Part shown: piece by piece, positions 3,859 to 38,173 of the stretch
How the letters are laid out: each line of letters starts with the position of its first letter
Position numbering within the stretch: the stretch's first letter is position 1
IMG/VR virus record: IMGVR_UViG_3300001213_000009
Location: 1-46,796 of that record
Origin: a virus
Strand: one strand, 5' to 3'
Length of the DNA stretch: 46,796 nt
The notes under the pieces: model-generated
Seen by the model: the letters and a program-made list of their open reading frames with translations, nothing else
Database searches by the model: none
What the model was told of the DNA's origin: nothing
Made by a program: the position numbers and the translations under genes

Positions 3859-4229
3859 ATGGCAAACGCACAGATTTCATTTGGGTCTAAACTCGGTCTG
3901 CTTAACAACGCAGCAATCGGAGAAATCTATTACGACCAACTACGCCCCTTGCTTCGCGGCGTTGCACTGTCGCCAATCCGAACGGTGTGGCAGAAACCCA
4001 CGCGGCGAATGCCATCGTGCATAACGGAGTGGGTACGGGGTCATGGTTCACAATCAAGAAGATTGACTCCTCGGCCAACGCCGTCACCCTCACAACCACG
4101 GGAGTTGGAGATACGATTGACGGGTCTTCCACTTACGCCTTGTCCGCTCAATGGAACTCGGTCACTATATTCTGTTCCATTGTAAACAACTCTTCACTGT
4201 TGCAATGGCTCATTCAAGCTAAGGTGTAA
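3859..4229 (+). CDS. Tail-type structural protein read across a -1 frameshift
   Basis: The first part (from ATG 3859, with AAGGAG upstream) reads sensibly up to QLRP and then turns into Pro/Arg/Ser nonsense to 4185. One frame back, sense resumes at once with VANPNG, then THAANAIVHNG, WFTIKKIDSSANAVTLT and DTIDGSSTYAL, a familiar pattern of phage tail-fibre-type beta domains, and continues to a stop at 4229. The switch fits C-C-C-C at 3945-3948, where a proline tRNA can slip back one base and re-pair perfectly. The joined product is about 124 residues. This is either programmed -1 frameshifting, a lost base in the sequence, or a recent mutation. No ribosome site precedes the GTG at 3987 that could start the second half alone. 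Confidence 0.7.
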
Positions 4230-4232
4230 TTC

Positions 4233-6353
4233 ATGGCGATTATTCAAGTCACGTTCGACTCATCGAAGTGGACAGCGGGAACAGGAGCCGGTAGCTCTTA
4301 CGGGAGCAACGGCTACAACGCCTCCAGTGTGTTCATGGATGCCGATGGTGTGACTGCGTGGGCATTTGAGTCGGGTGGAGCAGGATTCGCTCGTTTCAAT
4401 ATCACAACCGGGACTATGGTTCATCAGGATGCAGCCTTCGGGATACCCGGCACCGGCTTCTACTTCACCGCAGCACACCAAGGCAATGCCATTTTCCTTC
4501 AGGACGGCTCTGGTCATTACTTTGTGGTTGGAAGCAACAACAACCTGTACAAATTTCACATTGCGTCGGGAACCCCCGGAACTCTGTTGAATGGGTACGA
4601 GGTTGTTGATGCTACATTCAACCTCGCCACACTCCCCTCCTTTGTCAGTGTGGAAGATGCGTGCATATTCTCCAGCGGGGGTGTCAACTACATAGCTCTT
4701 GTGGATTACAGTTCCGGAAAGTTGTATGTCCTTGACGCGGATACGATGACTTCAGTGGGGCATTACTCAACACCTGACACAGGGCGTGGAGTACAGGTGT
4801 TCCTAGACAAGAATGGAATTCTTTGGGCAGTGTTCAATATTGGAACCGCACCTTATCTTGATGTGCGTTTGGCAAATTGGACACCCTCGAATGGGGCTAC
4901 CTCTCAAGTCCTGAACATGAACGTAGACCGAATTGTGACACACTCAACGCACGGTCTTAGGGTTCGTGTGAAAGAGGCTGTGTATGTTCCGGCTACTCAC
5001 GCGGTGATTCTGGCATCCCCAGTTACAAATGCATCGGATGTCTGTCTCATCGACATGACTGCTTGGACACTCAGCACGTATCATCCCGACGACATCAGCT
5101 TTTGGGTGAGTCAGACTTCCGCATTTCTTGGGTTAGCCGATGAAGGAGTAGAGGCTGGAACGTTGATGATTGAGGGTGCCCCCCAGTCACCAAATAATGC
5201 AGCACACGTCGGCGGTGTACTTCGCATCATCGACCCTACAACTTTGAACGTGCTGGTTGACATCAACGTTACAAGCGACATCATTGACGATACCACAATG
5301 ACGCTAACCCCGGTTCCCAATTTTGTTTATGAGGGGCAGTGGGGCATCATAGAGACCGTTCAACATAATTCGGGTAATCAACTGTATATGCAGACAACTA
5401 TCAACAACGTTGTCAACTTAGGTGCTCACAACTCTCTGCAAGGACCAACCGCTTATTTTGATTTTTACAATTGCCTCAGAGAAGCAACATGGTTGAGCGA
5501 CCCCTCCAACTCCGCGTATGTTTATCATGCGATTCAGTTGTATGGCACATATTATGAGTACAGTGCTTTTATCAACGGATATGACTCCACGGGTCATCCG
5601 GATTTTGGTGTCAATAATCCCATTCCCCAAATCCTCCGCCCCGCCAGAGTAAGCGTGAATGGAACTAGCAATTCTTACATTGAATTTTTAGCGGCACCGG
5701 GGGCTGGCGGCAACGCAGTCACAGTCTATATCGACACGAGCACCGATGGGGCACCAACCGTATCCGGGAACAATATCACTGTCCATGCTGCCACATTAAC
5801 TTTGAATGAAGTTGTTGCACAATTTCCTGTGACAACTACCTATGGTCAGGTGACGGCATCTATAACCAGTGGCAGCGGAAATGATTCATTCTACCCCGGA
5901 AACTTGCTAAATCTTATTGGAGGGGGTGATGGCCCAGCTTATAACTCAGCCTACGTTGGACCAGCATTGTTTAGCACCACGGATTTGATGTATCCCGCGT
6001 TTGCTGGTGTTGCATGGAACTCTGCTGCAAGCAAGGCTGCGGTGACTTACAGTGGTAATGGCATAGGCACCGGGAGCCCAGTGTACCTCGTTTCAACCGC
6101 TACGCCTCAAGGGTCACTTGTTGCCGTCACGGCTGCACCTAATCCAGCGACAGCCGGAGGGAATGTGACTTTGACAGCCACTATAACGGGTGCTGTGTCG
6201 GCGTTTCCCACTTCTGGAACTGTTCAATTCTATGATGGGGTCACTCCAATCGGAGCCCCGGCAAGTGTAAACGGCAGCGGACAGGCGTCCATCATCACAA
6301 CTTTTCTAGGCGGGTCACACTCAATAACCGCACGTTACAGCGGGGGTTCATAA
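4233..6353 (+). CDS. Fibre-like protein: propeller-type scaffold plus Ig-like domain (shorter paralogue)
   Basis: The 706-residue product begins three bases after the previous gene. Residues 1-350 contain repeated aromatic and Gly/Asp-rich strands (DGVTAWAFE, LYKFHI, LLNGYEVVDATF, LYVLDADTMT, LRIIDPTTLNV) like a beta-propeller. A middle region of unclear fold follows. The last 85 residues form a bacterial Ig-like domain with the hallmark GTVQFYDG and SITARYSG. The protein stops immediately after that domain. The next gene encodes a clear paralogue with the same scaffold, and the stop codon TAA is followed directly by its ATG. No signal peptide is present. A tail fibre, baseplate or capsid decoration role is inferred. 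Confidence 0.75.
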   Translation: MAIIQVTFDSSKWTAGTGAGSSYGSNGYNASSVFMDADGVTAWAFESGGAGFARFNITTGTMVHQDAAFGIPGTGFYFTAAHQGNAIFLQDGSGHYFVVGSNNNLYKFHIASGTPGTLLNGYEVVDATFNLATLPSFVSVEDACIFSSGGVNYIALVDYSSGKLYVLDADTMTSVGHYSTPDTGRGVQVFLDKNGILWAVFNIGTAPYLDVRLANWTPSNGATSQVLNMNVDRIVTHSTHGLRVRVKEAVYVPATHAVILASPVTNASDVCLIDMTAWTLSTYHPDDISFWVSQTSAFLGLADEGVEAGTLMIEGAPQSPNNAAHVGGVLRIIDPTTLNVLVDINVTSDIIDDTTMTLTPVPNFVYEGQWGIIETVQHNSGNQLYMQTTINNVVNLGAHNSLQGPTAYFDFYNCLREATWLSDPSNSAYVYHAIQLYGTYYEYSAFINGYDSTGHPDFGVNNPIPQILRPARVSVNGTSNSYIEFLAAPGAGGNAVTVYIDTSTDGAPTVSGNNITVHAATLTLNEVVAQFPVTTTYGQVTASITSGSGNDSFYPGNLLNLIGGGDGPAYNSAYVGPALFSTTDLMYPAFAGVAWNSAASKAAVTYSGNGIGTGSPVYLVSTATPQGSLVAVTAAPNPATAGGNVTLTATITGAVSAFPTSGTVQFYDGVTPIGAPASVNGSGQASIITTFLGGSHSITARYSGGS

Positions 6354-9300
6354 ATGGCGGGAGCAAGACAAATTACATTCGACCCGGAGATTTGGTCAAG
6401 TCCAAATCAGCCCGGACCCCCCGGCGTGGCTCCTAATGCGGGTGCTGATGCTTCTAATGCGTGGTTAGACAATGATGGTGCGACCGCTTGGGCTTTTGAG
6501 GCCGCCGCTGGTGGTTATGCCCATTTCGACATCAACACCGGAACCATTCTTCACGAGGATACTCTCTTCGGCCAACCCGCAAGTAGTAACGTCCTCTATT
6601 ACTCTTCCCTCATGGGAGCCGCTGTTATATGGAAACAAGATGCTGCTGGTTTCTATTACACATTATTCAAACACTCTGGTCATGTAACCATCTACAAATT
6701 TCACCTTGCAGGGTCAGGACCGATTACTCACCTATCTGTATACAAGGGGGGCAAAGGGTTTGCGGTCAACGACACTTTCAGCATTAGTGGGGGTAACAAC
6801 GACGCTGTAGGAAAAGTCCTTTCGGTGGATAGTGTCGGTGGCGTCACTCTTTCTATAATCACAACTGCTGGCACCGGATATACAGCCAAGGTCAAAAGCA
6901 CGACGACCGCCACAAGTGGTGTTGGCACAGGGTTGGTGGTCAGTATTGTCAGCAACGGACAACCCGGTACGCTCCTCAACGGGTACGAGATTATTGACGG
7001 GACTTTCGATACAGCGGTCTTCTTTGGAGGGGTCAACCCGTCGCAGAACATCGTTCTGTGGCACGGCAGCGATGGAAACAACTATCTAGGGATGGTGGAT
7101 GACTACAGTTCCAAAATGTATGTGATTAACACAGACACCATGACCCCGGCTGGATACTTTGATTGCGACCCAAGTTTCAACTACGGCGGGGCTGGTGGTT
7201 TCCAATCATTCGTGGATAAGTATGGAGCCCTTTGGGGTGTGTACGAAATCTATGGTGCTCCCAGCAATGTGAACACAGGTGTGCTTCTCTCTACTTGGAG
7301 CCCATCAAATGGGTTTCTGACTGGACCGATTGAAACCAGCACTCTTAATTTTGGCGGAACTAGCTACGCTCCAAACGACACCTTCACTGTTGACGGTGGT
7401 GGAGGTAACGCAGCAGGGACTGTTCTCACGGTTACTGGTGGGGGCGTCGTTTCCTCGTATGTCATCACGAGTTCTCTTGGAAAAACTTCATTGGACAATG
7501 GTGGGGCAAGCTACATTCCCGGCACAGCCTTCACTGTGACTACGGGTACTGGTGATGCTACGGGAGTGGTCGATACTGTTGGCGGTGGGGGTGCTGTTCT
7601 CACTTATCACATCACAGGCTTGGGCACTAGCGGTTATGCGGTGGGCACTGCGGTTCCTACTGTTATGACAACGGCACCTCTCACTGATTTCAATACAAGC
7701 ATAGGTGTCGCCGGGGCAAATTATGAAGTAGGTGACACCTTCACAGTCACTAGTGATAGTGGAGATGCGGTGGGTACTGTTCTCACTGTGGGTGGGGGTG
7801 GGTCGGTTTCAACCTACTCCATTACCGTCCACGGCACCGCTTACACAAACACAGTCGGCGCGGTGACCAGCACAGTCGTTAAACTAAAGAACTCCAACAC
7901 GAGCATCGGCAACGCGGGTACTGGCTTCCATGCGGGTGATTTTTTCTCAGTTCAAGCGGGTAACTACAGCGCGATTGGCACTGTCCTCACCGTGGGCGGT
8001 GGCGGAAATGTTCTCACCTATAATATGGCAGTTCCGGGTGACCAGTACCCCGCAAGCACAAACAACCCCACACAGGGCTCGACAATTCCGACCAATGCCA
8101 GCACCACTCTCAATAATGGTGGTGGCAGTTATGCTCCCGGAGACACCTTTGCGGTCGGCTTTGGTGGGGGTGAGCGGGGCACGGTGTCTACAGTTGATGG
8201 TAGCGGTGCGGTACTTACATACAACATTACAGGCGGCGGTCAGCCGACACAGTACAACGGAGTCATCCTTTGTGTTGCGGTAGCTCCTCTTACTAACGGT
8301 AACACCAGCCTTAATAATGGAGGACTGGATTACGCCCCCGGAGACACTTTTGCCATTGAAGCACCAGTTGGCGGCTACGGTAGTGGTGCGATTGGAACTG
8401 TGGACACGGTAAATGGAAGTGGTACGATTCTTACGTATCACATCAGCACAGCCGGGAGCGGGTATACCACAGGTACGTGCAACTCCACCACACTGACAGG
8501 TGTTGGTTTTGGTGCGACTCTCACTGCGGCCTTTAGTGGAAACGGGTTCTCTCTAAACGTGAATGCGGGAACGGGCTTGACCATTGACGTTAACAGCGGC
8601 ACGGGTTTGACTTTGAATACAACCCCGACTGGCTCCGGCTTGACGTTGAACATTGACAGCATCGGCTCTGGCACTAATTACTCATTGGCAACCGGAAAAA
8701 CTACCACAGCGACCAGTGGCGGTGGAAGCGGCTTGATGATTGACATCACTGGCCTTGCTCCGAGTGCTAACACCGTTCTTAATACACAAATTTTTTACAT
8801 CGACCCGACTGTTCACGGGCTCTCGGTTGACCCGTATGCTTACGCTGGGTATGTTCCTGCCAATCATTCCTTACTGGTTGCACAAGAACCATGGTGGCTC
8901 ACGGGTGAAGTTAGTGGCATCGCTCTACCCCACTTCTCAGGCCCGATAAGCAACGATGGATTCTTTAGTGTACCTGCAACTGTGTTGAATGTTGGCGGGG
9001 CTAACTATGCGGCGTATGACACATTCACAGTTGACGGAGGTTCTCCTCTAGCGACAGGCATCGTCATGAGTGTAGATGGCGGAGGTGCTGTGCTTACTTA
9101 CCTCTTGACTGGTGGAGTCGGCATCGCCCCAATCGCCTCAGGCGGAGCGGGGGGTGGCTACGCCCCCGGAGATACTTTCACCGTTGACCATTTGAATGGA
9201 ACAGGTACAGCGGCAACTGGCACTGTTCAAACAGTTGACGGTGGTGGTGGGGTTCTTCTCTATACGCTCACGGGGGCTGGAACCAACTACTATGTCGTCA

Positions 9301-11891
9301 CTGGAGTGACAACAACGACGACGAGCGGGGGTGGCTCCGGGCTCACGCTGAATATTGACTACCTCTCTCCGATGGGTGGGGACGGCTATGTAAAAGCAAC
9401 CGGCATCACCACGACAGCGACAAGTGGCATCGGGGTGGGGTTCACTCTCAACATCGACTTTATCACTGGGAAACGAGTCTCTTGGCACGCTGATGACCAG
9501 CGGTTGTTCTCTGTTTATTACTATGACTCCAACGTCATGGGCTTTGATGTAGGTGTGCAAAATGATGGAACTCTGATGCTGGAAGGAAATGGAGCCGACC
9601 CATTCCAAGCGGGTGGGGTGCTCAACATTGTTGACCCAACAACACTGACTGTAACTCAAACGATTGATGCCACACGAGTGATTGTTAGCGAGTCCCCTAA
9701 CATTACGGTCTTCCCCGGACCTCGTTGGTCAAACAACATTTTGGTGGGGCCTGTTTCCCTCGCGGTAAGTGATGGAGTGAATGCAACCTATACCACGACT
9801 CACAACAACATGATTGTTGGGGCACATGCCGGTGTTCAAAATATGTTGGGGGTGTCCGCCGTTGGGGGTAATGTAAACACCGTCACACCAACGGACATAA
9901 CAGTACCGGATGCAACGGCATTTACTGCACATACGCAACACCCACCGCAATTGGTGGACGGTCCTCCTTACAGTTACAACAATAGATACTCGGTTATCAG
10001 TGCTCAGGGCACAAGCTATCCGGGGTTCATGAGCTACACGTGGAGCAAGGCCAACAGTGTGGTTCTCTGTACCTACCTCTGGTGGGGAAGCCCCATCTAC
10101 ATTGTTCCAACAAATGAGCCTCTGTATGCAGCCGCCACAGGCGGCCCGGTTTCTTTGACGGTGACAACAGGCACAACCTCAACAGCCATCACGAGCATTG
10201 TAACCAACCCAGCTTATCCGAGTTCTTCAGTTCAAATTACTGCTCAAGTGACGGCGGGTTCCGGCCCGAATCCGTCGAGTGGTACAGTACAATTCTATGA
10301 TAACGTTTCTCCGATTGGGTCGCCGGTCAGTGTCAACGGTTCAGGTGTAGCTATCCTAACGACCAGCAGTTTTGCCACTGTGGGCTCTCATCCCATCACG
10401 GCTTCGTTTACAGGCGTAGGCTATAGCCCTAGTACGTCTCCATCAGTTCCTTTGTCTATTGTGAAGGCTCCAACCACTACGACTATTACCTCGTACAACA
10501 ACCCAGCGGTGGTGGGTCTTGCGATTACCTTCAGGGTGGTTGTAAATCAGCCGGATGGGGGCACGGTTACTCTAACGGATACGTTCAATAGCGTTACGAC
10601 AACACTGACAACGCTAACGCTAACTCCTAGCGGGAGCACAAGCACAGTCAATTACACAACGTCATCCCTAGCCTACGGTCTCCACACCATCACCGCGACT
10701 TACAGCGGGGATTCTACTTATAGCGGAAGCACAGGAACGGTGTTGCAGCACATCGTACATCCGAGCGATACCTATGTTTATTTGCCAAGCTTCGCTTTGG
10801 TTGGAACGTACAGCGCACAGGGAGACACTCTTCTCCCACCAGCCGCCGTGGCTGTTCTTGTTCCAACGGAGACTACGGGGTCATTCATCGTTCCTAACAC
10901 CCCACTTTTTGTCATCTGGAACACAACCAATATTTCTCAAGTGAGAATCACGGGAGACAATGGGGTCGATGCCCCTCTGGATTCCGGATTCATCATCACG
11001 GTGGGTCAGGATTCGGGTAGCTTTGAGATTCCTTCGGGATTCACGCACGACATTACTTTGACTTTCTTGGCGTATCCCAACAATATTACCAGTCCCCCTG
11101 TGGTGATAACACAGATGCTCTCAGTGGACTTTGCTTCGGGGGCCATGACAGGGATTGCCATCACTCCCTCGAACCCGACCCTTACGGCGGACTCTCTCAA
11201 CCCCTCGACCCTGATTCAAACTCAGCAGTTCGTGGCTACCGCCACTTATGAGGATAGCAGCACCGCAATTCTCCGGTCTTCGGCAGCGGTGTGGGCGTCT
11301 ACGAACACGGTGGTGGCGACTGTTAACTCTACAGGATTGGCGTCTACCACCGCCGCTGGTGCTACTACCATATCCTCCATATATGGAACATTTACAGCCA
11401 GCACACTACTGACACTTCAACTGGCCACTGTGAATAACCTTGTTATTTCAGGCCACGCTGTTCCTTGGATTGTTACTGGCACAATCAACACGATGTATTC
11501 CACACCGGGGCAGTCGAGTGGCTCCACCCCACCCGCCACTATAGCAACCACCCCCGGAAAGGTGGTAACTATTCAATATCTCTCCGGCTTGTGGACTGTG
11601 GGGGGAACGTACTCTTCTACAGATGCGAACGGTCGAACAAGTGATAATGGGCGGTCGTCAGGGGAAGCCGGTTACTATATCCCCCCGTCGTCCACTCCGG
11701 TCTACGCGCAAATGCTCATTGGGGGATTCGCTGATAGCACAGGTCAACTGGTTGCACCCCCTGTCGCCATTGGTAACCACGCTGTTTTGACAACTCCAGC
11801 AGGGGCGACCCAGTTGGTCATGGGCATGAACGACGGAACTACATGGAACGATAATGGGGGCTCCCTTACCGTGGAGTACACAGTAATTTAA
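6354..11891 (+). CDS. Giant fibre-like protein with inserted beta-repeats, Ig-like domains and C-terminal LecA-like lectin module
   Basis: The 1845-residue product shares its scaffold with the 706-residue neighbour (AWAFEAAAGG, YKFHL, LLNGYEIIDGTF, MYVINTDTMT, LNIVDPTTLTV). Three blocks are inserted into it, at about residues 125-202, 325-800 and 880-1040. They are built from about nine copies of a 60-70 residue repeat with core YAPGDTFTV-x-GG, GTVLTV-GGGG-VLTY and TTTATSGGGSGL. Two Ig-like domains follow (about 1278-1468), then a group-2-like Ig domain (about 1596-1690). The last 150 residues match the PA-IL (LecA) galactose-lectin pattern, with an IGGFA strand, a PVAIGNH strand and LVMGMNDGT-x-NDNGGSL. 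This suggests a receptor-binding tail fibre or spike that ends in a sugar-binding head. Confidence 0.8.
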   Translation: MAGARQITFDPEIWSSPNQPGPPGVAPNAGADASNAWLDNDGATAWAFEAAAGGYAHFDINTGTILHEDTLFGQPASSNVLYYSSLMGAAVIWKQDAAGFYYTLFKHSGHVTIYKFHLAGSGPITHLSVYKGGKGFAVNDTFSISGGNNDAVGKVLSVDSVGGVTLSIITTAGTGYTAKVKSTTTATSGVGTGLVVSIVSNGQPGTLLNGYEIIDGTFDTAVFFGGVNPSQNIVLWHGSDGNNYLGMVDDYSSKMYVINTDTMTPAGYFDCDPSFNYGGAGGFQSFVDKYGALWGVYEIYGAPSNVNTGVLLSTWSPSNGFLTGPIETSTLNFGGTSYAPNDTFTVDGGGGNAAGTVLTVTGGGVVSSYVITSSLGKTSLDNGGASYIPGTAFTVTTGTGDATGVVDTVGGGGAVLTYHITGLGTSGYAVGTAVPTVMTTAPLTDFNTSIGVAGANYEVGDTFTVTSDSGDAVGTVLTVGGGGSVSTYSITVHGTAYTNTVGAVTSTVVKLKNSNTSIGNAGTGFHAGDFFSVQAGNYSAIGTVLTVGGGGNVLTYNMAVPGDQYPASTNNPTQGSTIPTNASTTLNNGGGSYAPGDTFAVGFGGGERGTVSTVDGSGAVLTYNITGGGQPTQYNGVILCVAVAPLTNGNTSLNNGGLDYAPGDTFAIEAPVGGYGSGAIGTVDTVNGSGTILTYHISTAGSGYTTGTCNSTTLTGVGFGATLTAAFSGNGFSLNVNAGTGLTIDVNSGTGLTLNTTPTGSGLTLNIDSIGSGTNYSLATGKTTTATSGGGSGLMIDITGLAPSANTVLNTQIFYIDPTVHGLSVDPYAYAGYVPANHSLLVAQEPWWLTGEVSGIALPHFSGPISNDGFFSVPATVLNVGGANYAAYDTFTVDGGSPLATGIVMSVDGGGAVLTYLLTGGVGIAPIASGGAGGGYAPGDTFTVDHLNGTGTAATGTVQTVDGGGGVLLYTLTGAGTNYYVVTGVTTTTTSGGGSGLTLNIDYLSPMGGDGYVKATGITTTATSGIGVGFTLNIDFITGKRVSWHADDQRLFSVYYYDSNVMGFDVGVQNDGTLMLEGNGADPFQAGGVLNIVDPTTLTVTQTIDATRVIVSESPNITVFPGPRWSNNILVGPVSLAVSDGVNATYTTTHNNMIVGAHAGVQNMLGVSAVGGNVNTVTPTDITVPDATAFTAHTQHPPQLVDGPPYSYNNRYSVISAQGTSYPGFMSYTWSKANSVVLCTYLWWGSPIYIVPTNEPLYAAATGGPVSLTVTTGTTSTAITSIVTNPAYPSSSVQITAQVTAGSGPNPSSGTVQFYDNVSPIGSPVSVNGSGVAILTTSSFATVGSHPITASFTGVGYSPSTSPSVPLSIVKAPTTTTITSYNNPAVVGLAITFRVVVNQPDGGTVTLTDTFNSVTTTLTTLTLTPSGSTSTVNYTTSSLAYGLHTITATYSGDSTYSGSTGTVLQHIVHPSDTYVYLPSFALVGTYSAQGDTLLPPAAVAVLVPTETTGSFIVPNTPLFVIWNTTNISQVRITGDNGVDAPLDSGFIITVGQDSGSFEIPSGFTHDITLTFLAYPNNITSPPVVITQMLSVDFASGAMTGIAITPSNPTLTADSLNPSTLIQTQQFVATATYEDSSTAILRSSAAVWASTNTVVATVNSTGLASTTAAGATTISSIYGTFTASTLLTLQLATVNNLVISGHAVPWIVTGTINTMYSTPGQSSGSTPPATIATTPGKVVTIQYLSGLWTVGGTYSSTDANGRTSDNGRSSGEAGYYIPPSSTPVYAQMLIGGFADSTGQLVAPPVAIGNHAVLTTPAGATQLVMGMNDGTTWNDNGGSLTVEYTVI

Positions 11892-12509: not shown

Positions 12510-13045
12510 AAAGTGCCTCTCTATCCACGCCCTTCTTTCTGGTGTCCAAACGAGAGCAGAACTTGACCGCTGGGAGCAGTTCTTCATCGCTCTGTTCAAG
12601 TCGAGAGACCCCAAGTTTGGTTACAACATTTGCAAGGGCGGAGAAGGCTTCAGTGGCTCTCACAGTCAAGGCAGTAATTGCACGCAACGCCCAAGGCCCC
12701 ACAGAGGAGACTCGTAAAAAGTTGATTGACTCCCACACAGGGCTTACTCGCAGCCTAGAATCCCGCGAGAAACAAAGACTGACTATCACAGGAGCTAACA
12801 ACCACTTCTACGGCAGGACTCACTCAGAAGAAACTCTCGCCCAAACTAGAAAGCCGATTCGCTGTGTAACCACGGGTGATGTATTCCCTTCACTTTTGCA
12901 AGCGGCTCAGTGGGCCGGTTGGAATGGAGGGGGTTCAGGGAACCTATCACGGGCACTTAAGGGTAAAGGAAATTTTCTCGGTAAACATTTTGAATACGTT
13001 CAACAACTTTCCAAGCCTATTATAGGTGAAATGCATGGTCTCTAA
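12502..13045 (+). pseudogene. GIY-YIG homing endonuclease remnant, middle and C-terminal part, frameshifted
   Basis: The first frame (12502 to about 12690) encodes ELDRWEQFFIALF, carrying the catalytic Glu, and GYNICKGGEGF, carrying the conserved Asn. These belong to a GIY-YIG catalytic domain that lacks its N-terminal strands here. The sense then moves to another frame (about 12690-13045) with GPTEETRKKLIDS, NNHFYGRTHSEET and a DNA-binding tail with GDVFPSLLQAAQWAGW, like the modular NUMOD-type tails of homing enzymes. So one frameshift lies inside, near 12690-12705, and the N-terminal half lies on the other strand (12200-12509). The 3' end overlaps the start of the next gene by 11 bases. 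The pattern suggests inversion plus decay of an inserted homing gene. Confidence 0.7.
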
Positions 13046-20993: not shown

Positions 20994-22058
20994 GTGAAGT
21001 GTCATCAACGCAAAATCAGAGAAGCAGCGGCCCTCACAGAGATTGACGACCCCGAAGCGTTGGAAGCCGCTAAGGACATCAAGAATGCTGTCGTTCGTGA
21101 AATTGACCGCAAGACCGCTGAGTCTGTTATCCTGAAATATGAGTGGTTGGGTAACATGGGCAACTCGGCTCGTTACTTCGGCATCTACTTCAAACATCCT
21201 ACCACAGGTTCTGAGTATCTTGCCGGGGTCAACTGCTTCGGGCATCCGGGTTCTATATCCATCAATCAAATCTGTGGCAAGGAACACGTCGAAAAAATTT
21301 ACTGGTTGGCACGCGGGGCCTGCGTTCATTTCGCTCACCCCCATGCGGGTAGTCTACTTACCACTGAGGCTTGTAAGTTATTCGGAAAACCGTGGAAGAC
21401 TCGCGATGGGAAAGACATGCCAGCTAAGTTTGTATTTGTGGCTACAGCGGACAGTGACGCCGGAGAATGTGGTACAATTTATCAAGCTTGCAATTGGTTT
21501 TATGTGGGCAAGACAACCTCTGACCGGATGTTTCTCAAGGATGGTATGCCAAAGGAATTAGCTAAGAGTTATCGTGTGTTGGTTAAGGGTCCGTTGCGTA
21601 ATCGCACGGGTCGGGTGGAAACCGCAGACCCGGACGGTCGGCGTCACTTCCTGATTGATGGCGAGAAATACTACTGCGGAGACACATTGCCTGACGGCTG
21701 TAACCTCGTCGGCTCCCCGGCGTATCCATTCAAGGTCAAAGCGAAGTATGGAAAGACCATGAAGGAAGCGGAAGCGAATCGGTTGAAAGAAATTCTAGCT
21801 GAAGGTTGGAAGCCAATTCCGGGAAATCCAAAATATATGTACTGCGGAATCTACTCCGATGGTACCATCAAGGGTAAGAAGCAACGGAAGGAACTCATCG
21901 AAGCTTTGAAGAACCACAAGATGAAGGGCAAGGATTTTCTTCCATACCCAAAGCGTAAAGATGCGGCCAAGCACACGGGTGTGACGGCAGACATGCTCAG
22001 CAATGAGTCCACCGCCGAGGGCGGGGTTCAAGTCCCCGAGGCCGCTCCAAGCCTATAG
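20994..22058 (+). CDS. Mom-like DNA-modification (acyltransferase-type) protein
   Basis: The 354-residue product shows the core of phage Mom-type proteins: ILKYEWLG near residue 50, an aromatic GIYFKH strand, EYLAGVNCFGHPG, WLARGACVHFAHPHAGS and YADS-like FVATADSDAGECGTIYQACNWFYVGK. Mu Mom is an adenine-modifying enzyme of GNAT ancestry that hides phage DNA from restriction. Family members are usually 200 to 250 residues, and this one has an extra basic C-terminal 100 residues. The start is GTG with no Shine-Dalgarno site, but TATCCT and TATACC boxes stand just upstream, so a leaderless mRNA is possible. Substrate and product cannot be told from sequence. Confidence 0.65.
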   Translation: MKCHQRKIREAAALTEIDDPEALEAAKDIKNAVVREIDRKTAESVILKYEWLGNMGNSARYFGIYFKHPTTGSEYLAGVNCFGHPGSISINQICGKEHVEKIYWLARGACVHFAHPHAGSLLTTEACKLFGKPWKTRDGKDMPAKFVFVATADSDAGECGTIYQACNWFYVGKTTSDRMFLKDGMPKELAKSYRVLVKGPLRNRTGRVETADPDGRRHFLIDGEKYYCGDTLPDGCNLVGSPAYPFKVKAKYGKTMKEAEANRLKEILAEGWKPIPGNPKYMYCGIYSDGTIKGKKQRKELIEALKNHKMKGKDFLPYPKRKDAAKHTGVTADMLSNESTAEGGVQVPEAAPSL

Positions 22059-27528: not shown

Positions 27529-28281
27529 TTACTTCAAGGCCACCGCAACTACACCACCAGTGTACTTGAGGGCATTGAGGAACCCAGCGTTGGCTGTGGC
27601 ACCTGAGGTTACGCGGGTTTGAACCACGAAGTGGCTCGAACCATTATGCAGTGTCGAAGAGAACTGTTGGACCGAGTTGGAATCTGTGATGAGTGTCGAG
27701 CTATCCATGAGGACACCAACCTCGATGATGAGACCAGCTACAGCCGAAGTTGTGAAGAGGCTGGCACCGATTGGTGTCACCGCAGTTGCACCGACCTTGC
27801 CGTGCTTATCCACCCCCGTGGTTACACCGGCAACTTCGAATGCCTGAACATGGATGCCGCCATCGAATACTGGGCGACCCTGAGTCAGTGGGGGAGAAAG
27901 AACCTCATCAGTGTAGAATGCACCGACCGAGACACTCTGAGCACCAACGGTCACGGCAGCGTTACTGACATAGATATACGCACTGGGAAAATACCCAGCC
28001 GCATCAGGAACGTTGAGCAGCGGTGGTGAGTTGTAAGCATCTTGTGAAATGCCGACAAGGCTATCTACGAGATTGTAGACAGTGCCCTTGTCGTCGGTGA
28101 TAGTAGGAGCCGTGGTTTTCGAAGCAATGTCGCCAAATGCATACGGGTAACCACTCTTTTGTGCTTCCACTACGACAGCGATGTAGCTGCCAGCGGTAGT
28201 TTTGCTAGGCAGTGTAGCCTTAAGGGGCTCAACCTGATATGCTGCCGAGTTCTTGACGTGCTGAAGAATTGAAAGTGCCAT
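27529..28281 (-). CDS. Fibre-like or decoration protein
   Basis: The 250-residue product has AGAGGAG upstream of its ATG. Its sequence is rich in Ala, Val, Thr, Ser and Gly in alternating strands (SYIAVVVEAQKSG, LIIEVGVLMDSSTL, GFLNALKYTGGVVAVALK), with no long helices or Cys, as in phage fibre or capsid-decoration beta-sandwiches. The opening LQHVKNSAAYQVEPLKATLPS resembles exposed surface proteins of other phages. It is transcribed opposite to the sugar cassette next door, together with two similar genes at 36123 and 36876. Function as a receptor-binding or glycosylated protein is inferred. Confidence 0.6.
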   Translation of the reverse strand: MALSILQHVKNSAAYQVEPLKATLPSKTTAGSYIAVVVEAQKSGYPYAFGDIASKTTAPTITDDKGTVYNLVDSLVGISQDAYNSPPLLNVPDAAGYFPSAYIYVSNAAVTVGAQSVSVGAFYTDEVLSPPLTQGRPVFDGGIHVQAFEVAGVTTGVDKHGKVGATAVTPIGASLFTTSAVAGLIIEVGVLMDSSTLITDSNSVQQFSSTLHNGSSHFVVQTRVTSGATANAGFLNALKYTGGVVAVALK

Positions 28282-28382
28282 TGGAGGCTCCTCTTGAAGA
28301 GATGTTTCTACTTATAGTGCCCGTAGTCGAAAAAATTCGGGTATTTACTGGATGTATGCGTGTGTCTTTCATAGAGGGTTTG

Positions 28383-28889
28383 ATGTTCGTTTATTTGATT
28401 ACCAACCTAGTTAACGGCAAATACTATGTGGGCAAGACGAGCAGTAAGCTCGTACAAAGGTGGAGTTCCCACAAACATGCGGCCATCAAAGACCGGGGCG
28501 TCCTATATCAAGCAATGCGAGAGTACGGTGTTGAAAATTTCGATATTACTGTACTTTCTGAGGTCAAAGATACCATAACAATGAATCAATTGGAGGTTAT
28601 TTGGATTATCGCTCTCCGTTCTTATGACCCCGAAGTTGGTTACAACAACAAAATGGGAGGAGGGGGTAGGAAGGTAAGCAACTGGCTGGATAGCTATAGA
28701 GGAGCCTACCTGAGACAACGCAGCGAGAGGATGAAAGCAAGATGGCGAAACCCTGAGTTTAGAAAGAGGATGACAGGGGAAGGCAATCCCAATTTTGGTA
28801 AGGGCCTATTGGGGGCGGATAACCCGATGTATGGGAAATCCCGGCCAGATTTGGCTGAGTGGAATAGGAAGCGAGGCTCGTCTGTCTAG
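28383..28889 (+). CDS. GIY-YIG homing endonuclease at the head of the sugar cassette
   Basis: ATG 28383 has AGAGGG upstream (168 residues); the long extension from 28269 has no signature. FVYLITNLVNGKYYVGKTS is the GIY-YIG start, W-S-S-H-K the following basic stretch, QLEVIWIIALR the catalytic Glu helix and GYNNKMGGG the Asn motif. The C-terminus holds two copies of the NUMOD3 signature (NPNFGKG, NPMYGKS). All key residues look intact. The gene overlaps the next by about 59 bases and may have displaced its start codon. Confidence 0.9.
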   Translation: MFVYLITNLVNGKYYVGKTSSKLVQRWSSHKHAAIKDRGVLYQAMREYGVENFDITVLSEVKDTITMNQLEVIWIIALRSYDPEVGYNNKMGGGGRKVSNWLDSYRGAYLRQRSERMKARWRNPEFRKRMTGEGNPNFGKGLLGADNPMYGKSRPDLAEWNRKRGSSV

Positions 28890-29535
28890 CCTTGTCTCGT
28901 GTATCACTCCGACTTTCAATCGCCGCGAGTTCTGGCCTCGATGCATTGAGTGCTTTCAGCGTCAGGACTACCCCGATTTGGAGTGGGTCATTGTTGATGA
29001 TGGCACAGACCCCATCAAAGATTTGCTCCCCTCTGACCCACGCATACGCTACCATCATGAACTCCCAAAACGAAACCATGGGGAGAAAATGAACCGCTGC
29101 TGCGAACTTGCGAAGGGTGAATTCGTGATAGTTTTCGATGACGACGACTGGTACGCCCCTGACCGGATAACCCGACAGGTTGCACCCTTCGCCGACCCGA
29201 ACGTGCTCGTGACCGGGACTAGCCGCCTTTATTACTATCTGCACGGCACCAAACAGGCTTATCGTTACCATAACTGGACACAGGTACCGTGGCTGGCTGC
29301 TTTCGCTTTGCGTAAGTCAGTGTGGGAGAATCGGAAATTCGACCCCCTGCGATGCGGGGCAGACACATCCATGATAAAGAGCATCCCGCCCAACCAGCGA
29401 GGAGACCTAAATGACCTCTCCCTATTGGTTGCTTCCCTGCACCCAAATAATGCTTCCGCCAAAAATCTACCTAACGCTTCCTTTATTGAAACACCGTGGG
29501 AAGAGATTGAAGGGATTACAAAGGGCACCCTATGA
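28831..29535 (+). CDS. Glycosyltransferase family 2 (GT-A fold)
   Basis: The natural N-terminus of this enzyme should be around LVSCITPTFNRREF (residue 21 here), but no ATG, GTG or TTG lies there. The frame is open back to ATG 28831, inside the homing gene. The GT2 signatures are VDDG (residues 55-58) and FDDDDWY (102-108), where the aspartates bind a nucleotide sugar through a metal. The C-terminal part has an acceptor-side helix pattern. It is the first of eight sugar genes. Its TGA overlaps the ATG of the next in ATGA. It probably transfers a sugar onto a protein or lipid-linked glycan. Confidence 0.8.
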   Translation: MGNPGQIWLSGIGSEARLSSLVSCITPTFNRREFWPRCIECFQRQDYPDLEWVIVDDGTDPIKDLLPSDPRIRYHHELPKRNHGEKMNRCCELAKGEFVIVFDDDDWYAPDRITRQVAPFADPNVLVTGTSRLYYYLHGTKQAYRYHNWTQVPWLAAFALRKSVWENRKFDPLRCGADTSMIKSIPPNQRGDLNDLSLLVASLHPNNASAKNLPNASFIETPWEEIEGITKGTL

Positions 29536-30365
29536 GTGACTTGATTGTGGGCACAATACAGAATTACGATTGGCCGCAAGTTCGAGCGTACGCGGTGTCG
29601 TTGGTAAGGTCGGGATTCACGGGCGCTAAGATTCTGTTTACGAATAACATAACTAGTTCAGCGAGGGTGAACCTCTCCCAACTCGGATTTAACCTTATTG
29701 ACTTCGTGTGCGATGACCGAGACGGGTTCATTATTCGAGGCCGGTTCTCCCCGGTAGTTGATTTCCTGAAAGCAAACCACCAGAACTTTCGCTACGTCGT
29801 TTGGAGTGACATCAGGGATGTTGTCTTTCAAACTAATCCCTCTTCTTGGCTGGAGAATAACTTAGGGAACCACCAGCTACTGGCTGCGAAAGAGTGTTGG
29901 AAGATTCGTGACGAGGGTTGTAACGATAAATGGGCCAAGGAAACGGTTAGTGCTGAAGACTACGTGTGGCTACGAGAAGAAGAGGCTTGCTGTGGTGGCA
30001 CGTTAGCTGGCACCTCTTCTGTGATGAGCGCGTTCCTCACTGGCATCTACGAAATTGTCTCCAACTCATCTCTGGCAAATGACCAAGCCGCTTTGAATTA
30101 CCTGCTCCGAGTGCCTCCCTTTAAAGAAGTTGTGCGAGTTCCCAGCATGGAAGAAGGCTTCGCGGTGATGTGTGCGGCGTTCCACTCCCCGACTTTTGAC
30201 AGCTATATCAACCCAAATATACCCCTGACGGACAGCACGCCGATATTTGATAAAACTTCCGGGACAATTTACGCTCCTGACTCCTACAGACCTTTCTCCA
30301 TTGTTCATCAGTACGATAGAGATTCATCTTGGACACCCATTATTGAGGACAAATATCTTGGTTAA
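29532..30365 (+). CDS. Putative glycosyltransferase with DxRD motif
   Basis: The 277-residue product overlaps the previous gene by four bases. Near residue 91 the motif WSDIRDVVFQ has the Asp-x-Arg-Asp pattern found in a family of GT-A-like enzymes that modify surface glycans, set after a strand-helix start (LIVGTIQNY...ILFTNNI). The Trp/Asp-rich parts further on would shape an acceptor site. There is no clear DxD elsewhere. The sugar is unknown. It is coupled with neighbours by overlapping stops and starts. Confidence 0.7.
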   Translation: MSDLIVGTIQNYDWPQVRAYAVSLVRSGFTGAKILFTNNITSSARVNLSQLGFNLIDFVCDDRDGFIIRGRFSPVVDFLKANHQNFRYVVWSDIRDVVFQTNPSSWLENNLGNHQLLAAKECWKIRDEGCNDKWAKETVSAEDYVWLREEEACCGGTLAGTSSVMSAFLTGIYEIVSNSSLANDQAALNYLLRVPPFKEVVRVPSMEEGFAVMCAAFHSPTFDSYINPNIPLTDSTPIFDKTSGTIYAPDSYRPFSIVHQYDRDSSWTPIIEDKYLG

Positions 30366-30909
30366 TGTCGATAAAGCACTACAATTGCGCGGCATCCACT
30401 CCAGTGGGGCGGTGTACTACCCGTGGCTGGCCGAACAGGCAAGTACCCGCAAACTCATCGCGGAAGTGGGGTCATGGATGGGTGGCAGTGCGCGTGCCAT
30501 GGCGGACAATACCTCCGGCACCGTCTACTGCATTGACCCATGGACGGTAACCCCTGAGATGTATGGGGACTCCGACTACCAAGCCCATAAGGCCGACCCC
30601 AATTGGCTCTTTGATGGATTCACCCACAACATGGAAGGCTTAACCAACTATCGAGCGGTGCGGATGCTATCCGTTCAAGCAGCGGAGTTCGTAAAGAACC
30701 AAGGGTTGAAATTTGACATGATATTTATCGACGCCTGTCATGAGTACGAGAGTGTCAAACAGGACATCCTCGCATGGCGTCCCTTGTTAGCAGATGGCGG
30801 TCTATTCTGCGGACATGATTGGGGTTTTCAAGGTGTAACACAGGCGGTAACAGAACTAATTCCCGGAGCATATCCGGTTGGTGCGGATTCTATTTGGAGG
30901 GCAGCATGA
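30358..30909 (+). CDS. SAM-dependent methyltransferase, Methyltransf_24 type
   Basis: The likely start is TTG 30358, nine bases after a GAGG and overlapping the previous stop (183 residues); the longer frame from 30247 has no support. IAEVGSWMGGSARAMAD at residues 34-50 binds SAM, VYCIDPW follows as motif II, then FDMIFIDACHEYESVKQD and GGLFCGHDW. This is the family seen also at 16512, usual in sugar clusters where it methylates a terminal sugar. The TGA overlaps the ATG of the epimerase gene in ATGA. Confidence 0.85.
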   Translation: MVNVDKALQLRGIHSSGAVYYPWLAEQASTRKLIAEVGSWMGGSARAMADNTSGTVYCIDPWTVTPEMYGDSDYQAHKADPNWLFDGFTHNMEGLTNYRAVRMLSVQAAEFVKNQGLKFDMIFIDACHEYESVKQDILAWRPLLADGGLFCGHDWGFQGVTQAVTELIPGAYPVGADSIWRAA

Positions 30910-31889
30910 AGAAGATACTTATAACAGGTGGGTTTGGATTTATTGGCTCACACTTGACCGAGAGATTGCTACAAGAGCCGAACAACCAAGTTCACGTGGT
31001 GGACAGCCTAATCACGAGCCCCATCGACGTAGGCTTGTTTGTGAAGCAATTGGAGTACGCCGAACGATTGACTTATGACATCTGCACGATACGGGAGTTT
31101 TTCGCTCGTCCGGAGGTTCCCGAGTTCGATGAAATATATCACCTAGCTTCGGTCGTCGGCCCGGTTGGTGTCTTGAAATATGGTGGTGTAATCCTACGGG
31201 ATATGGTTGGGGACGCCTATGACCTTATCAACTATTCGCTAAAGCGAAAGATAAAACTCACCGATGTGTCCACCAGTGAAGTCTACGGTGGCGGAAAGAA
31301 CGGCTACTGCTGCGAGACCGACTCGATGATTGTTCCAGCTAAAATCTCCGTTCGATTGGAGTATGCGGTTAGCAAGCTGGCTTGTGAAATTGCTTTAGTG
31401 AATACCTGTCGCACCTCTGACCTGCACGCCACATTGGTTAGACCGTTCAACGTTGCCGGTCCAAGACAGGCTACCGATGGGGGATTCGTATTGCCCCGCT
31501 TTATCAATCAAGCCCTAGCGGGGCAACCGCTAACGGTGTATGGAGAGGGCATCAGTGTTCGAGCGTTCACTGACGTGAAGGACATTGTAGATGGAATTAT
31601 CCGCACGATGAACTACGGAAGGTCAGGAGAAGCCTATAACATCGGCAACCCAGCCAACAAGACCACCATCCTTGACTTGGCTCAGAGGGTCATTGCGGTC
31701 ACGGGCAGCGATAGTGAAATCACGTTTGTTGACCCGAAGACGTTGTGGGGACCGCTGTTCGAAGAAGCAAGCGATAAGTATCCGGACGCTGACCGGGCAA
31801 TCACTGAACTAGGCTGGCACCCCCAAGCGGGGTTGGATACCATTATTCGTGATAGTGTGGAGTACATCCGCTCCGGACGACGGGACTAA
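30906..31889 (+). CDS. NAD-dependent epimerase/dehydratase (nucleotide sugar)
   Basis: The 327-residue product is an extended short-chain dehydrogenase. GGFGFIG (residues 8-14) binds NAD, STSEVYG (122-128) gives the catalytic Ser/Thr, and YAVSK (Y153, K157) completes the active site. RPFNVAGPRQ and RAFTDVKDI are typical of UDP- or GDP-sugar epimerases and dehydratases. It probably makes the nucleotide sugar used by the cassette's transferases; the exact sugar cannot be decided. The start codon overlaps the preceding stop. Confidence 0.9.
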   Translation: MKKILITGGFGFIGSHLTERLLQEPNNQVHVVDSLITSPIDVGLFVKQLEYAERLTYDICTIREFFARPEVPEFDEIYHLASVVGPVGVLKYGGVILRDMVGDAYDLINYSLKRKIKLTDVSTSEVYGGGKNGYCCETDSMIVPAKISVRLEYAVSKLACEIALVNTCRTSDLHATLVRPFNVAGPRQATDGGFVLPRFINQALAGQPLTVYGEGISVRAFTDVKDIVDGIIRTMNYGRSGEAYNIGNPANKTTILDLAQRVIAVTGSDSEITFVDPKTLWGPLFEEASDKYPDADRAITELGWHPQAGLDTIIRDSVEYIRSGRRD

Positions 31890-31890
31890 T

Positions 31891-32646
31891 ATGAAAGTTC
31901 TTATCACGGTAAGCAGTTGGGTTGGGGCTGCGACCAATGGTGAAAATCAGGCGATGCGGGAGACATTCCTAAAGGATGCTCCCGCCTATCCCGGCTTGGA
32001 GTACAGGTTCTTCATTGGTGATGGGTTACCCACGGGCGACGATGAAACCGCTTTGTTCGCATCATTCGATGCTTCCGCTCCGGGCTACCGGAACAAGGCT
32101 ATCGCCGGGATGCGGACAGCCCAAACCACGTATATTCCAAAAGAGGATGAGGTCATCCTACCCAACACACCGGATGACTACGCTCGACTCTGTTACAAAG
32201 TCCGAGGACAGTTTCGTTGGGCATTGGAGCATGGATTTGATTACACCTTTCAAGTCGGTTCAGACATCTACATTGTATTGAAACGCTTGATGGAGAGCGG
32301 ATTTGAGGCTCATGACTACGTGGGCAAGACTTGTGGCGTTCACCCCTTGGTGGGTAATCATTACGCTGGGGGCGGCGGGTACTGGTTGAGTAAGAAAGCC
32401 TTGCAACACGTCGTGGACCAGCCTGTGACGTTTTGGGCTGAAGACCTGTGGGTGGGTTCTATCATGTCCAAGAACAACATTGGTCTTCACATAGACCCAA
32501 GATACGCAGTGGACTACCCCGAACTCCCACACCGAGACAATGACATCATCACGTCTCATCTTGGAATTCACAACGGGGTTTTTGGAAAATATGACCCCAA
32601 AATAATGTATGAGGTACACGCGGCATTTGAAAGAGAGAATCTATGA
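31891..32646 (+). CDS. Galactosyltransferase-like (GT31-type) enzyme
   Basis: ATG 31891 directly follows the epimerase TAA by one base (251 residues). The pattern DDYARLCYKVRGQFRWALEH, then YTFQVGSDIYIVL with Asp at residue 125, resembles GT31-type beta-1,3-transferases, in which a Y..L..K helix precedes the DxD-like metal site. GYWLSKKALQHVV and FWAEDLWVGSI fit the acceptor side. It is coupled to the next gene by an ATGA overlap. It likely adds galactose-type sugar; the assignment is by motif only. Confidence 0.75.
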   Translation: MKVLITVSSWVGAATNGENQAMRETFLKDAPAYPGLEYRFFIGDGLPTGDDETALFASFDASAPGYRNKAIAGMRTAQTTYIPKEDEVILPNTPDDYARLCYKVRGQFRWALEHGFDYTFQVGSDIYIVLKRLMESGFEAHDYVGKTCGVHPLVGNHYAGGGGYWLSKKALQHVVDQPVTFWAEDLWVGSIMSKNNIGLHIDPRYAVDYPELPHRDNDIITSHLGIHNGVFGKYDPKIMYEVHAAFERENL

Positions 32647-33371
32647 AAGATGTGACCGCGCTTGTTAAAGCCTTCCTTCGGGACGATTACTTGTTCGATT
32701 GTGTCCGGTCTCTTCGAGAGACATATCCCGAGATTCATATTATCGTTGCTGACGATGGCAACTCCTCGGATGAGAAAGAGGAGCAGTTGCGACAGCTTGG
32801 TGTCAGCAAGTACATTCGATTGCCATTCAACTCAGGACTCAGTGTTGGAAGAAATGCAATGGTGGATGCTTGCGATACACCGTATTTACTATTATGTGAT
32901 GACGACCTACTGTTTACTTCTGAAACTCGCATTGAAAACCTCCGCCGTCTCATGGACATTTCAGACATAGCCTCCGGGGCGTTCCTGAATTATGGGACTG
33001 AGGTATTTAACTACGAGATGAATCTCAATCAAGGGGAGGGGAGATTCTGGTTATCCAATGTTACTTGGCCCCCCTTCTCTGACTATGAAGGCGTTCGGTA
33101 CGGGAAGTGTGACCTAACGCACAACATTTTTGTGGCAGACACGGAAGTGATTCGCCGAATTCGTTGGGAGCCCAACATCAAGGTACGTTATGAGCACGAA
33201 GATTTTTTCATGTCAGCTAAACTGCAAGGAGCAAGCGTGGTGTACTGTCCGGATGTTTTAGTGTTGCACAAGAAGCAAGGGTACCCAGCATCCTCGGAGT
33301 ATGCTTCCCATCGTTGGGATGACGCCCCCTCACGCGAGGCGTTCATTGCAAAGTGGGGGTTTATATGGTAA
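32643..33371 (+). CDS. Glycosyltransferase family 2, paralogue of the fused enzyme's C-half
   Basis: The 242-residue protein has DDG (ADDGN, residues 36-40) and CDDD (85-88), the GT2 nucleotide and metal sites, and later WLSNVTWPPF, YEHEDFF and CPDVLVLHKK. It is related along its length to residues 245-500 of the 34290 protein, down to the first DNA bases of the two frames. Its start overlaps the previous stop (ATGA), and its own stop overlaps the next gene's start by seven bases. Confidence 0.85.
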   Translation: MKDVTALVKAFLRDDYLFDCVRSLRETYPEIHIIVADDGNSSDEKEEQLRQLGVSKYIRLPFNSGLSVGRNAMVDACDTPYLLLCDDDLLFTSETRIENLRRLMDISDIASGAFLNYGTEVFNYEMNLNQGEGRFWLSNVTWPPFSDYEGVRYGKCDLTHNIFVADTEVIRRIRWEPNIKVRYEHEDFFMSAKLQGASVVYCPDVLVLHKKQGYPASSEYASHRWDDAPSREAFIAKWGFIW

Positions 33372-34288
33372 AGAACTATAGCCTTCGATTGATTTCAAAC
33401 AATAAGCCTGATACCCCGTCAGGTATTTGTTCAAGCAACCAAATGATTGCATGGGGACTGTGGTCAGAGTTTTCCAAACACCCTCACGTCACGTTGTCCT
33501 ACTACAACGACTCGCAGGGTCAGGGGGGTTGGGCTTCCGGCGAACAGAGCTTCAATGAACTCCCTGAGGTTGACTTCACCCTCATTCATACCTATGCCCC
33601 GGTTACGATTTTTACAGAAGCCAAGAAGAAAACGAAGCATGAAGTGATGTGGTTATCCGAACTGCCATACACTGGGATGGACCACAATTTCACATTCCTC
33701 CCCTCTACTTGGTCTGAGCAAGTCCCGTTACCAATTCTGCGGGATTTGATAGAAGAATACACGATTGCGGAGAAGACACCGGGAAGCATCCTGCTTGACC
33801 ACAGCATTCCTCGTCAATTTGCAAACTATGCCAACTGGTCGGGACGATTGTTAGAGTGGTTGGCCCCAACACATGTCGCACGTCAGGTATGCCAGCAACG
33901 TCGCGTTGAGTGGGAGTCGGATGAAGACCGGAATATTCCAGAGTGGGTGTCCAGTTTGTTTCCAGTTCCCTACCCGAAGTTTTTGAAAGCTACCGCATCT
34001 TTCGAGACTTTTATTATGACGCACCCCGGCACCTATGAGCACCAAATCATAGATATGGTGGCTAGGGGAATTCGCGTGTTAGTTCCAGTTGAAGGCGGTT
34101 TACCGTTTGCTCCTCAGGATACGATAAACCGATTGGGGTTAGAGACATTTGCAACACGAGAGGGTTTACTATCGTTGCTAAACTCCCCAGCCAGTAAACC
34201 CCCATTTAGTTTTGACTCGTGTACTTCGATGCCAGAGATGGTGGCGACAGTAGACCAACACTGTCAGCAGTGCTTAAAGGGGGATTAA
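33365..34288 (+). CDS. Probable glycosyltransferase of GT-B type
   Basis: The 307-residue product starts in a seven-base overlap with the previous gene. The first part has a TPSGICSSNQMIAWGLWSEF start, like GT-B enzymes with a Gly-rich first loop, and the last part has GTYEHQIIDMVARGIRVLVP and PFAPQDTINRL, like the acceptor- or donor-binding domain of GT-B enzymes. The fold is inferred and no exact family was recognised. It stands among GT2-type genes as the only likely GT-B member. Confidence 0.55.
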   Translation: MVKNYSLRLISNNKPDTPSGICSSNQMIAWGLWSEFSKHPHVTLSYYNDSQGQGGWASGEQSFNELPEVDFTLIHTYAPVTIFTEAKKKTKHEVMWLSELPYTGMDHNFTFLPSTWSEQVPLPILRDLIEEYTIAEKTPGSILLDHSIPRQFANYANWSGRLLEWLAPTHVARQVCQQRRVEWESDEDRNIPEWVSSLFPVPYPKFLKATASFETFIMTHPGTYEHQIIDMVARGIRVLVPVEGGLPFAPQDTINRLGLETFATREGLLSLLNSPASKPPFSFDSCTSMPEMVATVDQHCQQCLKGD

Positions 34289-34289
34289 C

Positions 34290-37600: not shown

Positions 37601-38173
37601 TTGGTTGGCAAACGATTTGGAAGGTTGACAGTGCTGGGTCGCGATAACACCGCCCCCCGAGGTCAGGGACTTGTGGCTGTGTGGCTAGTAATGTGTGATT
37701 GTGGGAAGAGTAAAACAGTAAGCGGGAGAAGTCTTACTAAAAAACTCACTCGAAGTTGTGGTTGTCTCCGGTCGGAGCCCAAGAAAGATAGGAGTCAAAA
37801 ACAAAGTATCGACCGGGTGCGAAACTATGGACCTGCCAAGTCGTTCCTCCGTTTGTATAAATACCAAGCTGCACAGAGGGGGAATGAATGGGGTATCACT
37901 GAGGAAAGGTTCCTTGAGTTAATCAAACAGCACTGCCATTACTGCGACTCGGCTCCCGTATTCACTCCTTGGATTCAGCGCATTCATTTATCTTTTGCGG
38001 CGAATGGGATTGACCGTATGGATAACTCCAAGGGTTATGTGGAGGGTAATGTTGTGGCGTGTTGCAAGATTTGCAATCGCTCCAAGTTAAATATGAAATA
38101 CGCAGACTTCCTTAGTTACCTAGAGGGTTTGATTGAAAAAAGGGGTAGTTGCTGGGAAATTTCCCGACTATGA
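37601..38173 (+). CDS. HNH homing endonuclease, N-terminus disturbed
   Basis: The protein (190 residues from TTG 37601) has KRFGRLTVL and CDCG...SCGC, a zinc module often found at the front of free-standing HNH homing enzymes. The HNH part is CHYC, then GIDRMDNSKGYVEGN, CCKICNRSK, with the expected H/N/Asp and zinc cysteines. Upstream, the natural start GTRPVVDLVGKR is in frame but lacks an ATG. The only ATG with a ribosome-type site (37578) is in another frame, so a one-base change may have moved it. It lies between fibre-like and virion-protein genes. Confidence 0.75.
   Translation: MVGKRFGRLTVLGRDNTAPRGQGLVAVWLVMCDCGKSKTVSGRSLTKKLTRSCGCLRSEPKKDRSQKQSIDRVRNYGPAKSFLRLYKYQAAQRGNEWGITEERFLELIKQHCHYCDSAPVFTPWIQRIHLSFAANGIDRMDNSKGYVEGNVVACCKICNRSKLNMKYADFLSYLEGLIEKRGSCWEISRL

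What the first reader, a model, noticed from the sequence alone, without database searches (positions are those of the whole stretch)
6354..11891. Repeat blocks inserted at three loops of a duplicated fibre scaffold
Aligning the 706- and 1845-residue paralogues by eye, the extra length is not at the ends only. After YKFHL and before GTLLNGY, after the W-SPSNG strand, and before the DGTLM strand, blocks of a 60-70 residue beta repeat (YAPGDTFTV...VLTY...TTATSGGGSGL) are placed between matching flanks. Each block ends in a similar TTTATSG segment. This suggests a mobile or expanding repeat that grows out of loops of one scaffold, which could vary receptor binding.
Basis: partly seen in the sequence, partly recalled or inferred. 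Interest (0 to 1): 0.7.

Follow-up and report, generated by a model that had tools for sequence, protein, structure and literature searches.

The report
Propeller fibre with barrel-domain loop inserts
A large soil phage carries two neighbouring copies of a propeller-shaped virion protein, and in one copy three loops have been filled with chains of a small barrel domain like the one phage T4 displays on its tail sheath; this is a clear case of known phage domain shuffling in an unusual arrangement.

Summary
An unsupervised alignment of the 706-aa (A) and 1845-aa (B) proteins gives four matching scaffold blocks (32-45% identical) separated by three B-only inserts of 81, 483 and about 175 residues (score 443; shuffles -10 +/- 9). 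All three inserts are one repeat family when tested block against block; nine units, 1 + 6 + 2.

The scaffold's N-terminal half models as a beta-propeller; the inserts appear to sit in strand c-d hairpins of three blades. The repeat is most likely related to the outward-facing domain I of T4-type tail-sheath protein gp18: profile hits in gp18 residues 102-152 and a cyanophage sheath, and a weak structural match to the same region.

The phage is a fragment of a jumbo myophage group related to Tunturi_5. Ongoing mobility or expansion is not supported: units are only 28-60% identical and there is no tandem DNA array. A divergent relative (L010) lacks insert 1, favouring gain in B. Receptor binding is plausible but untested.

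Verdict: a new variant of a known kind (promiscuous virion domains inserted in adhesin-like proteins).

The parts
4233..6353 (+). Paralogue A (706 aa): scaffold A1-402 (4233-5438) without the repeat inserts, then A-specific stretch, then an Ig-like domain
6354..11891 (+). Paralogue B (1845 aa): the same scaffold with three repeat inserts, then Ig-like array and C-terminal modules
6354..6710 (+). B scaffold block S1 (B1-119), 39% identical to A1-111
6711..6953 (+). Insert 1 (B120-200): one complete repeat unit (core 6729-6932), ending in STTTATSG
6954..7313 (+). B scaffold block S2 (B201-320), 45% identical to A112-221
7314..8762 (+). Insert 2 (B321-803): six units at 7338-7475, 7482-7688, 7692-7892, 7896-8099, 8103-8297, 8301-8516, then a degenerate C-terminal half ending in KTTTATSG
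8763..8927 (+). B scaffold block S3 (B804-858), 32% identical to A222-272
8928..9452 (+). Insert 3 (B859-1033, edges uncertain by 10-15 residues): two units at 8979-9116 and 9135-9341 plus an extra C-terminal half with ITTTATSG
9453..9836 (+). B scaffold block S4 (B1034-1161), about 33% identical to A273-402
10200..10454 (+). Ig-like domain Big_3_5 in B (B1283-1367); a second, weaker copy follows. The equivalent domain in A is at 6126-6347
10770..11126 (+). C-terminal module B1473-1591, recurrent in fibre-region ORFs of related phages
11151..11390 (+). Ig-like domain Big_2 (B1600-1679)
5643..5927 (+). A-specific module (A471-565) with no counterpart in B: paralogue A also has an addition, of another kind
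   Evidence: no database match

Best explanation
A and B are tandem paralogues of an exposed virion protein, most likely a tail-fibre or baseplate adhesin, of a jumbo myophage that probably infects Acidobacteriota. Their common N-terminal scaffold is a beta-propeller, probably of seven blades. In B, three strand c-d hairpins (blades 2, 4 and 5 by my count) have been extended by 1, 6 and 2 copies of a small beta-barrel domain related to domain I of the T4 tail-sheath protein gp18, itself an outward-facing insertion domain. Insertion at hairpins leaves the propeller core intact and would place all three chains on one face, as spacers or extra surface-binding modules. They arose by insertion followed by old tandem duplication and divergence. 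Shown: paralogy, three insert sites, one repeat family, age of the copies. Supported but not proven: propeller fold, gp18 domain I relationship, gain in B rather than loss in A. Inferred: hairpin positions, same face, binding or reach function.
For: Three inserts between aligned flanks of one family. Propeller: Foldseek top hits, best E 2e-4, probability 1.00; VIA-align Z up to 7.7 over residues 1-217. gp18 domain I: PDB profile hits to three sheath proteins; only T4 match lies in gp18 residues 102-152, E 3e-4; S-CAM3 sheath E 1.8e-6; forward profile against reversed control; PF22639 at E 5e-4 on the window; superposition on gp18 99-177. Domain I is an exposed insertion domain in T4 (PMC3004832). 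L010 lacks insert 1. Syntenic genes in Tunturi_5 are annotated tail fibres.
Against: Both AlphaFold models are of low confidence (mean pLDDT 41.5 and 61.3). The gp18 link is weak by each single test: PF22639 is below its cut-off, PDB E-values are 0.07-0.3, and VIA Z of about 3.6 ties with unrelated six-stranded barrels. Foldseek of the repeat found nothing significant. Only one outgroup, and only for site 1. Nothing shows where on the virion the proteins sit.
Confidence: 0.62

Rival explanations
1. Inserts are ancestral and were lost in A: the ancestor of A and B already had repeat-filled loops, and A is the trimmed copy.
For: The units are old (28-60% identical), so an ancient origin is possible; only one outgroup exists.
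Against: L010, a divergent scaffold relative, runs through site 1 without an insert; loss would need three clean excisions that leave the hairpins alignable.
Confidence: 0.2
2. The repeats are an actively mobile or expanding element that varies receptor binding.
For: Three separate loops hold the same family, with one site expanded to six units; insert 3 units resemble insert 2 units about as much as those resemble each other.
Against: Copies 28-60% identical, no tandem DNA array, no mobility domain in the inserts, ordinary composition; no pair of near relatives with different counts was found.
Confidence: 0.12
3. The repeat is an unrelated Gly/Thr-rich beta repeat, and the similarity to gp18 domain I is convergence on a common barrel or low-complexity pattern.
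For: Sequence scores are modest and Gly/Thr-rich; structural Z of about 3.6 ties with other six-stranded barrels.
Against: Sequence and structure independently converge on the same residues of several sheath proteins; reversed-profile control is empty below E 1.5.
Confidence: 0.25
4. A and B are not tail fibres but other exposed virion proteins, such as head decorations or neck fibres, and the barrels are decoration with no role in host binding.
For: The genes lie a few kilobases after the major head protein; PHROG hits of single units include head decoration and head closure proteins.
Against: Tunturi_5 genes in this region are annotated tail fibres; the C-terminal module recurs in large fibre-region ORFs. 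Annotation is not experimental.
Confidence: 0.25

Closest known systems
T4 gp18 tail-sheath domain I (Pfam PF22639 Gp18_dom_I)
   Same: Profile match to gp18 102-152, weak superposition on 99-177, exposed domain inserted in another domain
   Different: There it is one copy in a sheath protein; here nine copies in three loops of an adhesin-like protein; below the Pfam cut-off
Propeller-bearing phage proteins: phi11 RBP (Gp45), phiKZ gp131C, PRD1 P2 (PMC4901313)
   Same: Beta-propeller as the body of a putative host-recognition protein; phiKZ is also a large myophage
   Different: No comparable repeat-filled hairpins are described in the passages read; no sequence relationship was found here
BACON tandem repeats in crAss-like phages (PMC6949934)
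   Same: Tandem beta domains in tail-associated phage proteins, spread by duplication and domain transfer
   Different: Different domain family; here the copies sit in internal loops of a scaffold
Domain mosaicism of phage receptor-binding proteins (PMC10684548)
   Same: Unrelated virion proteins share homologous domains through shuffling
   Different: A survey of the general process; this exact arrangement was not looked up there
Tunturiibacter phage Tunturi_5 tail-fibre region
   Same: Same major head protein lineage (74% identity) followed by large genes annotated as tail fibres
   Different: No detectable scaffold or repeat match in Tunturi_5

Membership tests
Gp18_dom_I (T4 tail sheath domain I) | Match to PF22639 above the curated cut-off | tested here: not met
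   Best 15.7 bits against cut-off 27; E 5e-4 on the window
Gp18_dom_I (T4 tail sheath domain I) | Sequence similarity to domain I of solved sheath proteins | tested here: met
   Only T4 match is gp18 102-152, E 3e-4; S-CAM3 sheath E 1.8e-6; reversed control empty. PDB-wide E 0.07-0.3
Gp18_dom_I (T4 tail sheath domain I) | Six-stranded barrel topology | tested here: inconclusive
   Model of low confidence; VIA Z 3.6 to 3foa 99-177, tied with unrelated barrels
Beta-propeller | Closed ring of four-stranded blades | tested here: inconclusive
   Propellers fill the hit list for residues 1-217, but the model is of low confidence and the C-terminal blades are not resolved
Phage tail fibre / receptor-binding protein | Located on the tail and binds the host surface | not testable with these tools
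   Only synteny with annotated tail fibres
Mobile or recently expanding repeat | Near-identical copies, tandem DNA array or mobility gene in the inserts | tested here: not met
   Copies 28-60% identical; no tandem DNA array; no mobility domain in the inserts

The most novel reading that the evidence does not exclude
The gp18 domain I barrel is a general loop-passenger module of tailed-phage virions that repeatedly enters equivalent strand c-d hairpins of a propeller adhesin and is then duplicated there, giving phages a way to extend or change surface contacts without touching the scaffold core.
Probability: 0.3. Interest if true: 0.6.

Novelty: new variant of a known kind. Interest (0 to 1): 0.43.

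Why it matters
It gives a side-by-side pair, empty and filled, of the same virion scaffold, and ties an anonymous Gly/Thr-rich phage repeat to a structurally known outward-facing sheath domain. If it holds, many unnamed repeats in soil and marine phage fibres could be annotated, and the effect of loop-inserted barrels on adsorption could be tested directly.

Tried and rejected
(1) Direct searches for relatives of A or B: none in 50,697 phage records, none in IMG/VR by several patterns, none in prokaryote genomes. (2) Repeat pattern YAPGDTFTV in IMG/VR: three marine phage fibre-like contigs only. (3) PHROGs and NCBIfam on A and B: no informative match. (4) Foldseek of the repeat against PDB and BFVD: nothing significant, though the weak BFVD hits include several baseplate wedges and two tail sheaths. 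(5) Looking for the repeat-bearing region of the G007 ORF in sister contigs without the repeat: no homologue found. (6) Multiple alignment of blades to place the inserts in one column was not clean, so hairpin placement rests on predicted strands and motif reading. (7) Composition as a sign of recent import: inserts 0.52-0.56 G+C against 0.49-0.53 elsewhere, not distinctive. (8) Negative whole-record searches with the scaffold profile also missed the known weak L010 homologue, so they exclude only close relatives. (9) A first global MAFFT alignment misplaced the later blocks because of the repeats; replaced by the long-gap alignment.

Full report
Setting. The window is a whole 46.8-kb IMG/VR virus record with no tRNA. 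Its first ORF is the end of a major head protein, 74% identical to that of the 309-kb Tunturiibacter phage Tunturi_5 and 36% to Bacillus phage G. Eighty IMG/VR loci carry head proteins about 92-98% identical. So this is a fragment of a jumbo myophage group, probably of Acidobacteriota (PMC11924767). In Tunturi_5 the genes after the head protein include several annotated as tail fibres.

The observation. Leave-one-block-out profiles show that the three inserts are one family. Nine units pass threshold: one in insert 1, six in insert 2, two in insert 3. Read from the sequence, a complete unit is about 80 residues, with an N-terminal half (GGxxYxxGDTFTV..GTVxTVxGGGxVLTYxIT) and a C-terminal half (TTTATSGGGSGLTLNID). 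Insert 1 is one complete unit. The first units of inserts 2 and 3 are shortened, and every block closes with a C-terminal half.

Scaffold. AlphaFold2 on A with four partial relatives gave low confidence overall (mean pLDDT 41.5) but a regular run of blade-like strands over residues 33-274. Foldseek against PDB returned beta-propellers at the top (best E 2e-4, probability 1.00), and VIA-align agreed over residues 1-217. Reading the strands and turns, inserts 1 and 2 fall between the third and fourth strands of blades 2 and 4. Insert 3 falls at the end of the third strand of blade 5, with uncertain edges. This placement is an inference, as is the conclusion that all three chains leave from one face.

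Repeat identity. A profile built only from the window units finds the T4 tail-sheath protein gp18 at residues 102-152 as its only T4 match (E 3e-4), and the tail sheath of cyanophage S-CAM3 twice (E 1.8e-6 and 1e-4). Three of five PDB sequence hits are sheath domain I, and PF22639 Gp18_dom_I finds the window at E 5e-4, below its cut-off. In a common database gp18 scores E 0.0044 and the next unrelated ORF 3.2; the reversed profile has nothing below 1.5. The best-modelled unit superposes on gp18 99-177, though with a modest Z. Domain I (98-188) is a six-stranded barrel that is itself inserted in domain II and protrudes from the tail (PMC3004832). The same kind of unit occurs in marine phage fibre-like proteins (L085-L087), in a 2856-residue ORF of a related jumbo phage (G007) and, as a run, in a 1609-residue ORF of a 635-kb uncultured phage.

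History. Units are 28-60% identical in protein and 39-56% in DNA; inserts do not differ in composition; no tandem DNA array is detected. So insertion and duplication are old. Units of insert 3 resemble units of insert 2 about as much as insert 2 units resemble each other, which fits spread between loops from a shared stock but gives no direction. L010, the only other scaffold relative found (hhalign E 5.5e-5), runs through site 1 without an insert, which favours gain in B; its contig ends before sites 2 and 3 can be compared. Paralogue A has a different extra module (A471-565) elsewhere, so the scaffold seems generally tolerant of additions.

Other modules. B carries an Ig-like array and a module (B1473-1591) that recurs in the fibre region of many related phages, sometimes in its own small ORF. 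No repeat and no scaffold relative other than L010 was found near the head-protein gene in these loci, 35 of which hold at least 9.5 kb downstream. This marks the region as modular and fast-changing, with the caveat that gene order may differ and distant relatives can be missed.

Judgement. The mobile-repeat reading goes too far. The best account is a known process, promiscuous virion domains shuffled into adhesin-like proteins (PMC10684548; PMC6949934), with an unusual arrangement and a new, still provisional link to a known sheath domain.

Noticed in passing
3859-4229: A short gene just upstream of A seems split between two reading frames (3859-4185 and 3987-4229), either a sequencing error, a real disruption or a recoding site.
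   Followed up: partly
L047 14059-17586 (also L051, L052): A large ORF in the fibre region of a related phage carries an ice-binding-like domain (PF11999, E 6e-24).
   Followed up: no
L034 14165-16648: An ORF in the fibre region of another related phage carries an intein-like insert with Hint and LAGLIDADG-like parts.
   Followed up: no
12542-13045, 28269-28889, 37601-38173: Three homing-endonuclease-like ORFs in the window, of GIY-YIG or HNH/endonuclease VII type by PHROG match.
   Followed up: no
20994-22058 and 28795-36020: A Mom-like DNA modification protein and a run with a nucleotide-sugar epimerase and glycosyltransferases.
   Followed up: no
L102 3298-8124 (LR745206): A 635-kb uncultured phage has a protein of FNGG/WNDG-type short repeats interrupted by a run of the same barrel-like units: another possible scaffold-plus-insert case.
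   Followed up: partly
5643-5927: Paralogue A carries its own roughly 95-residue module with no counterpart in B and no database match.
   Followed up: partly
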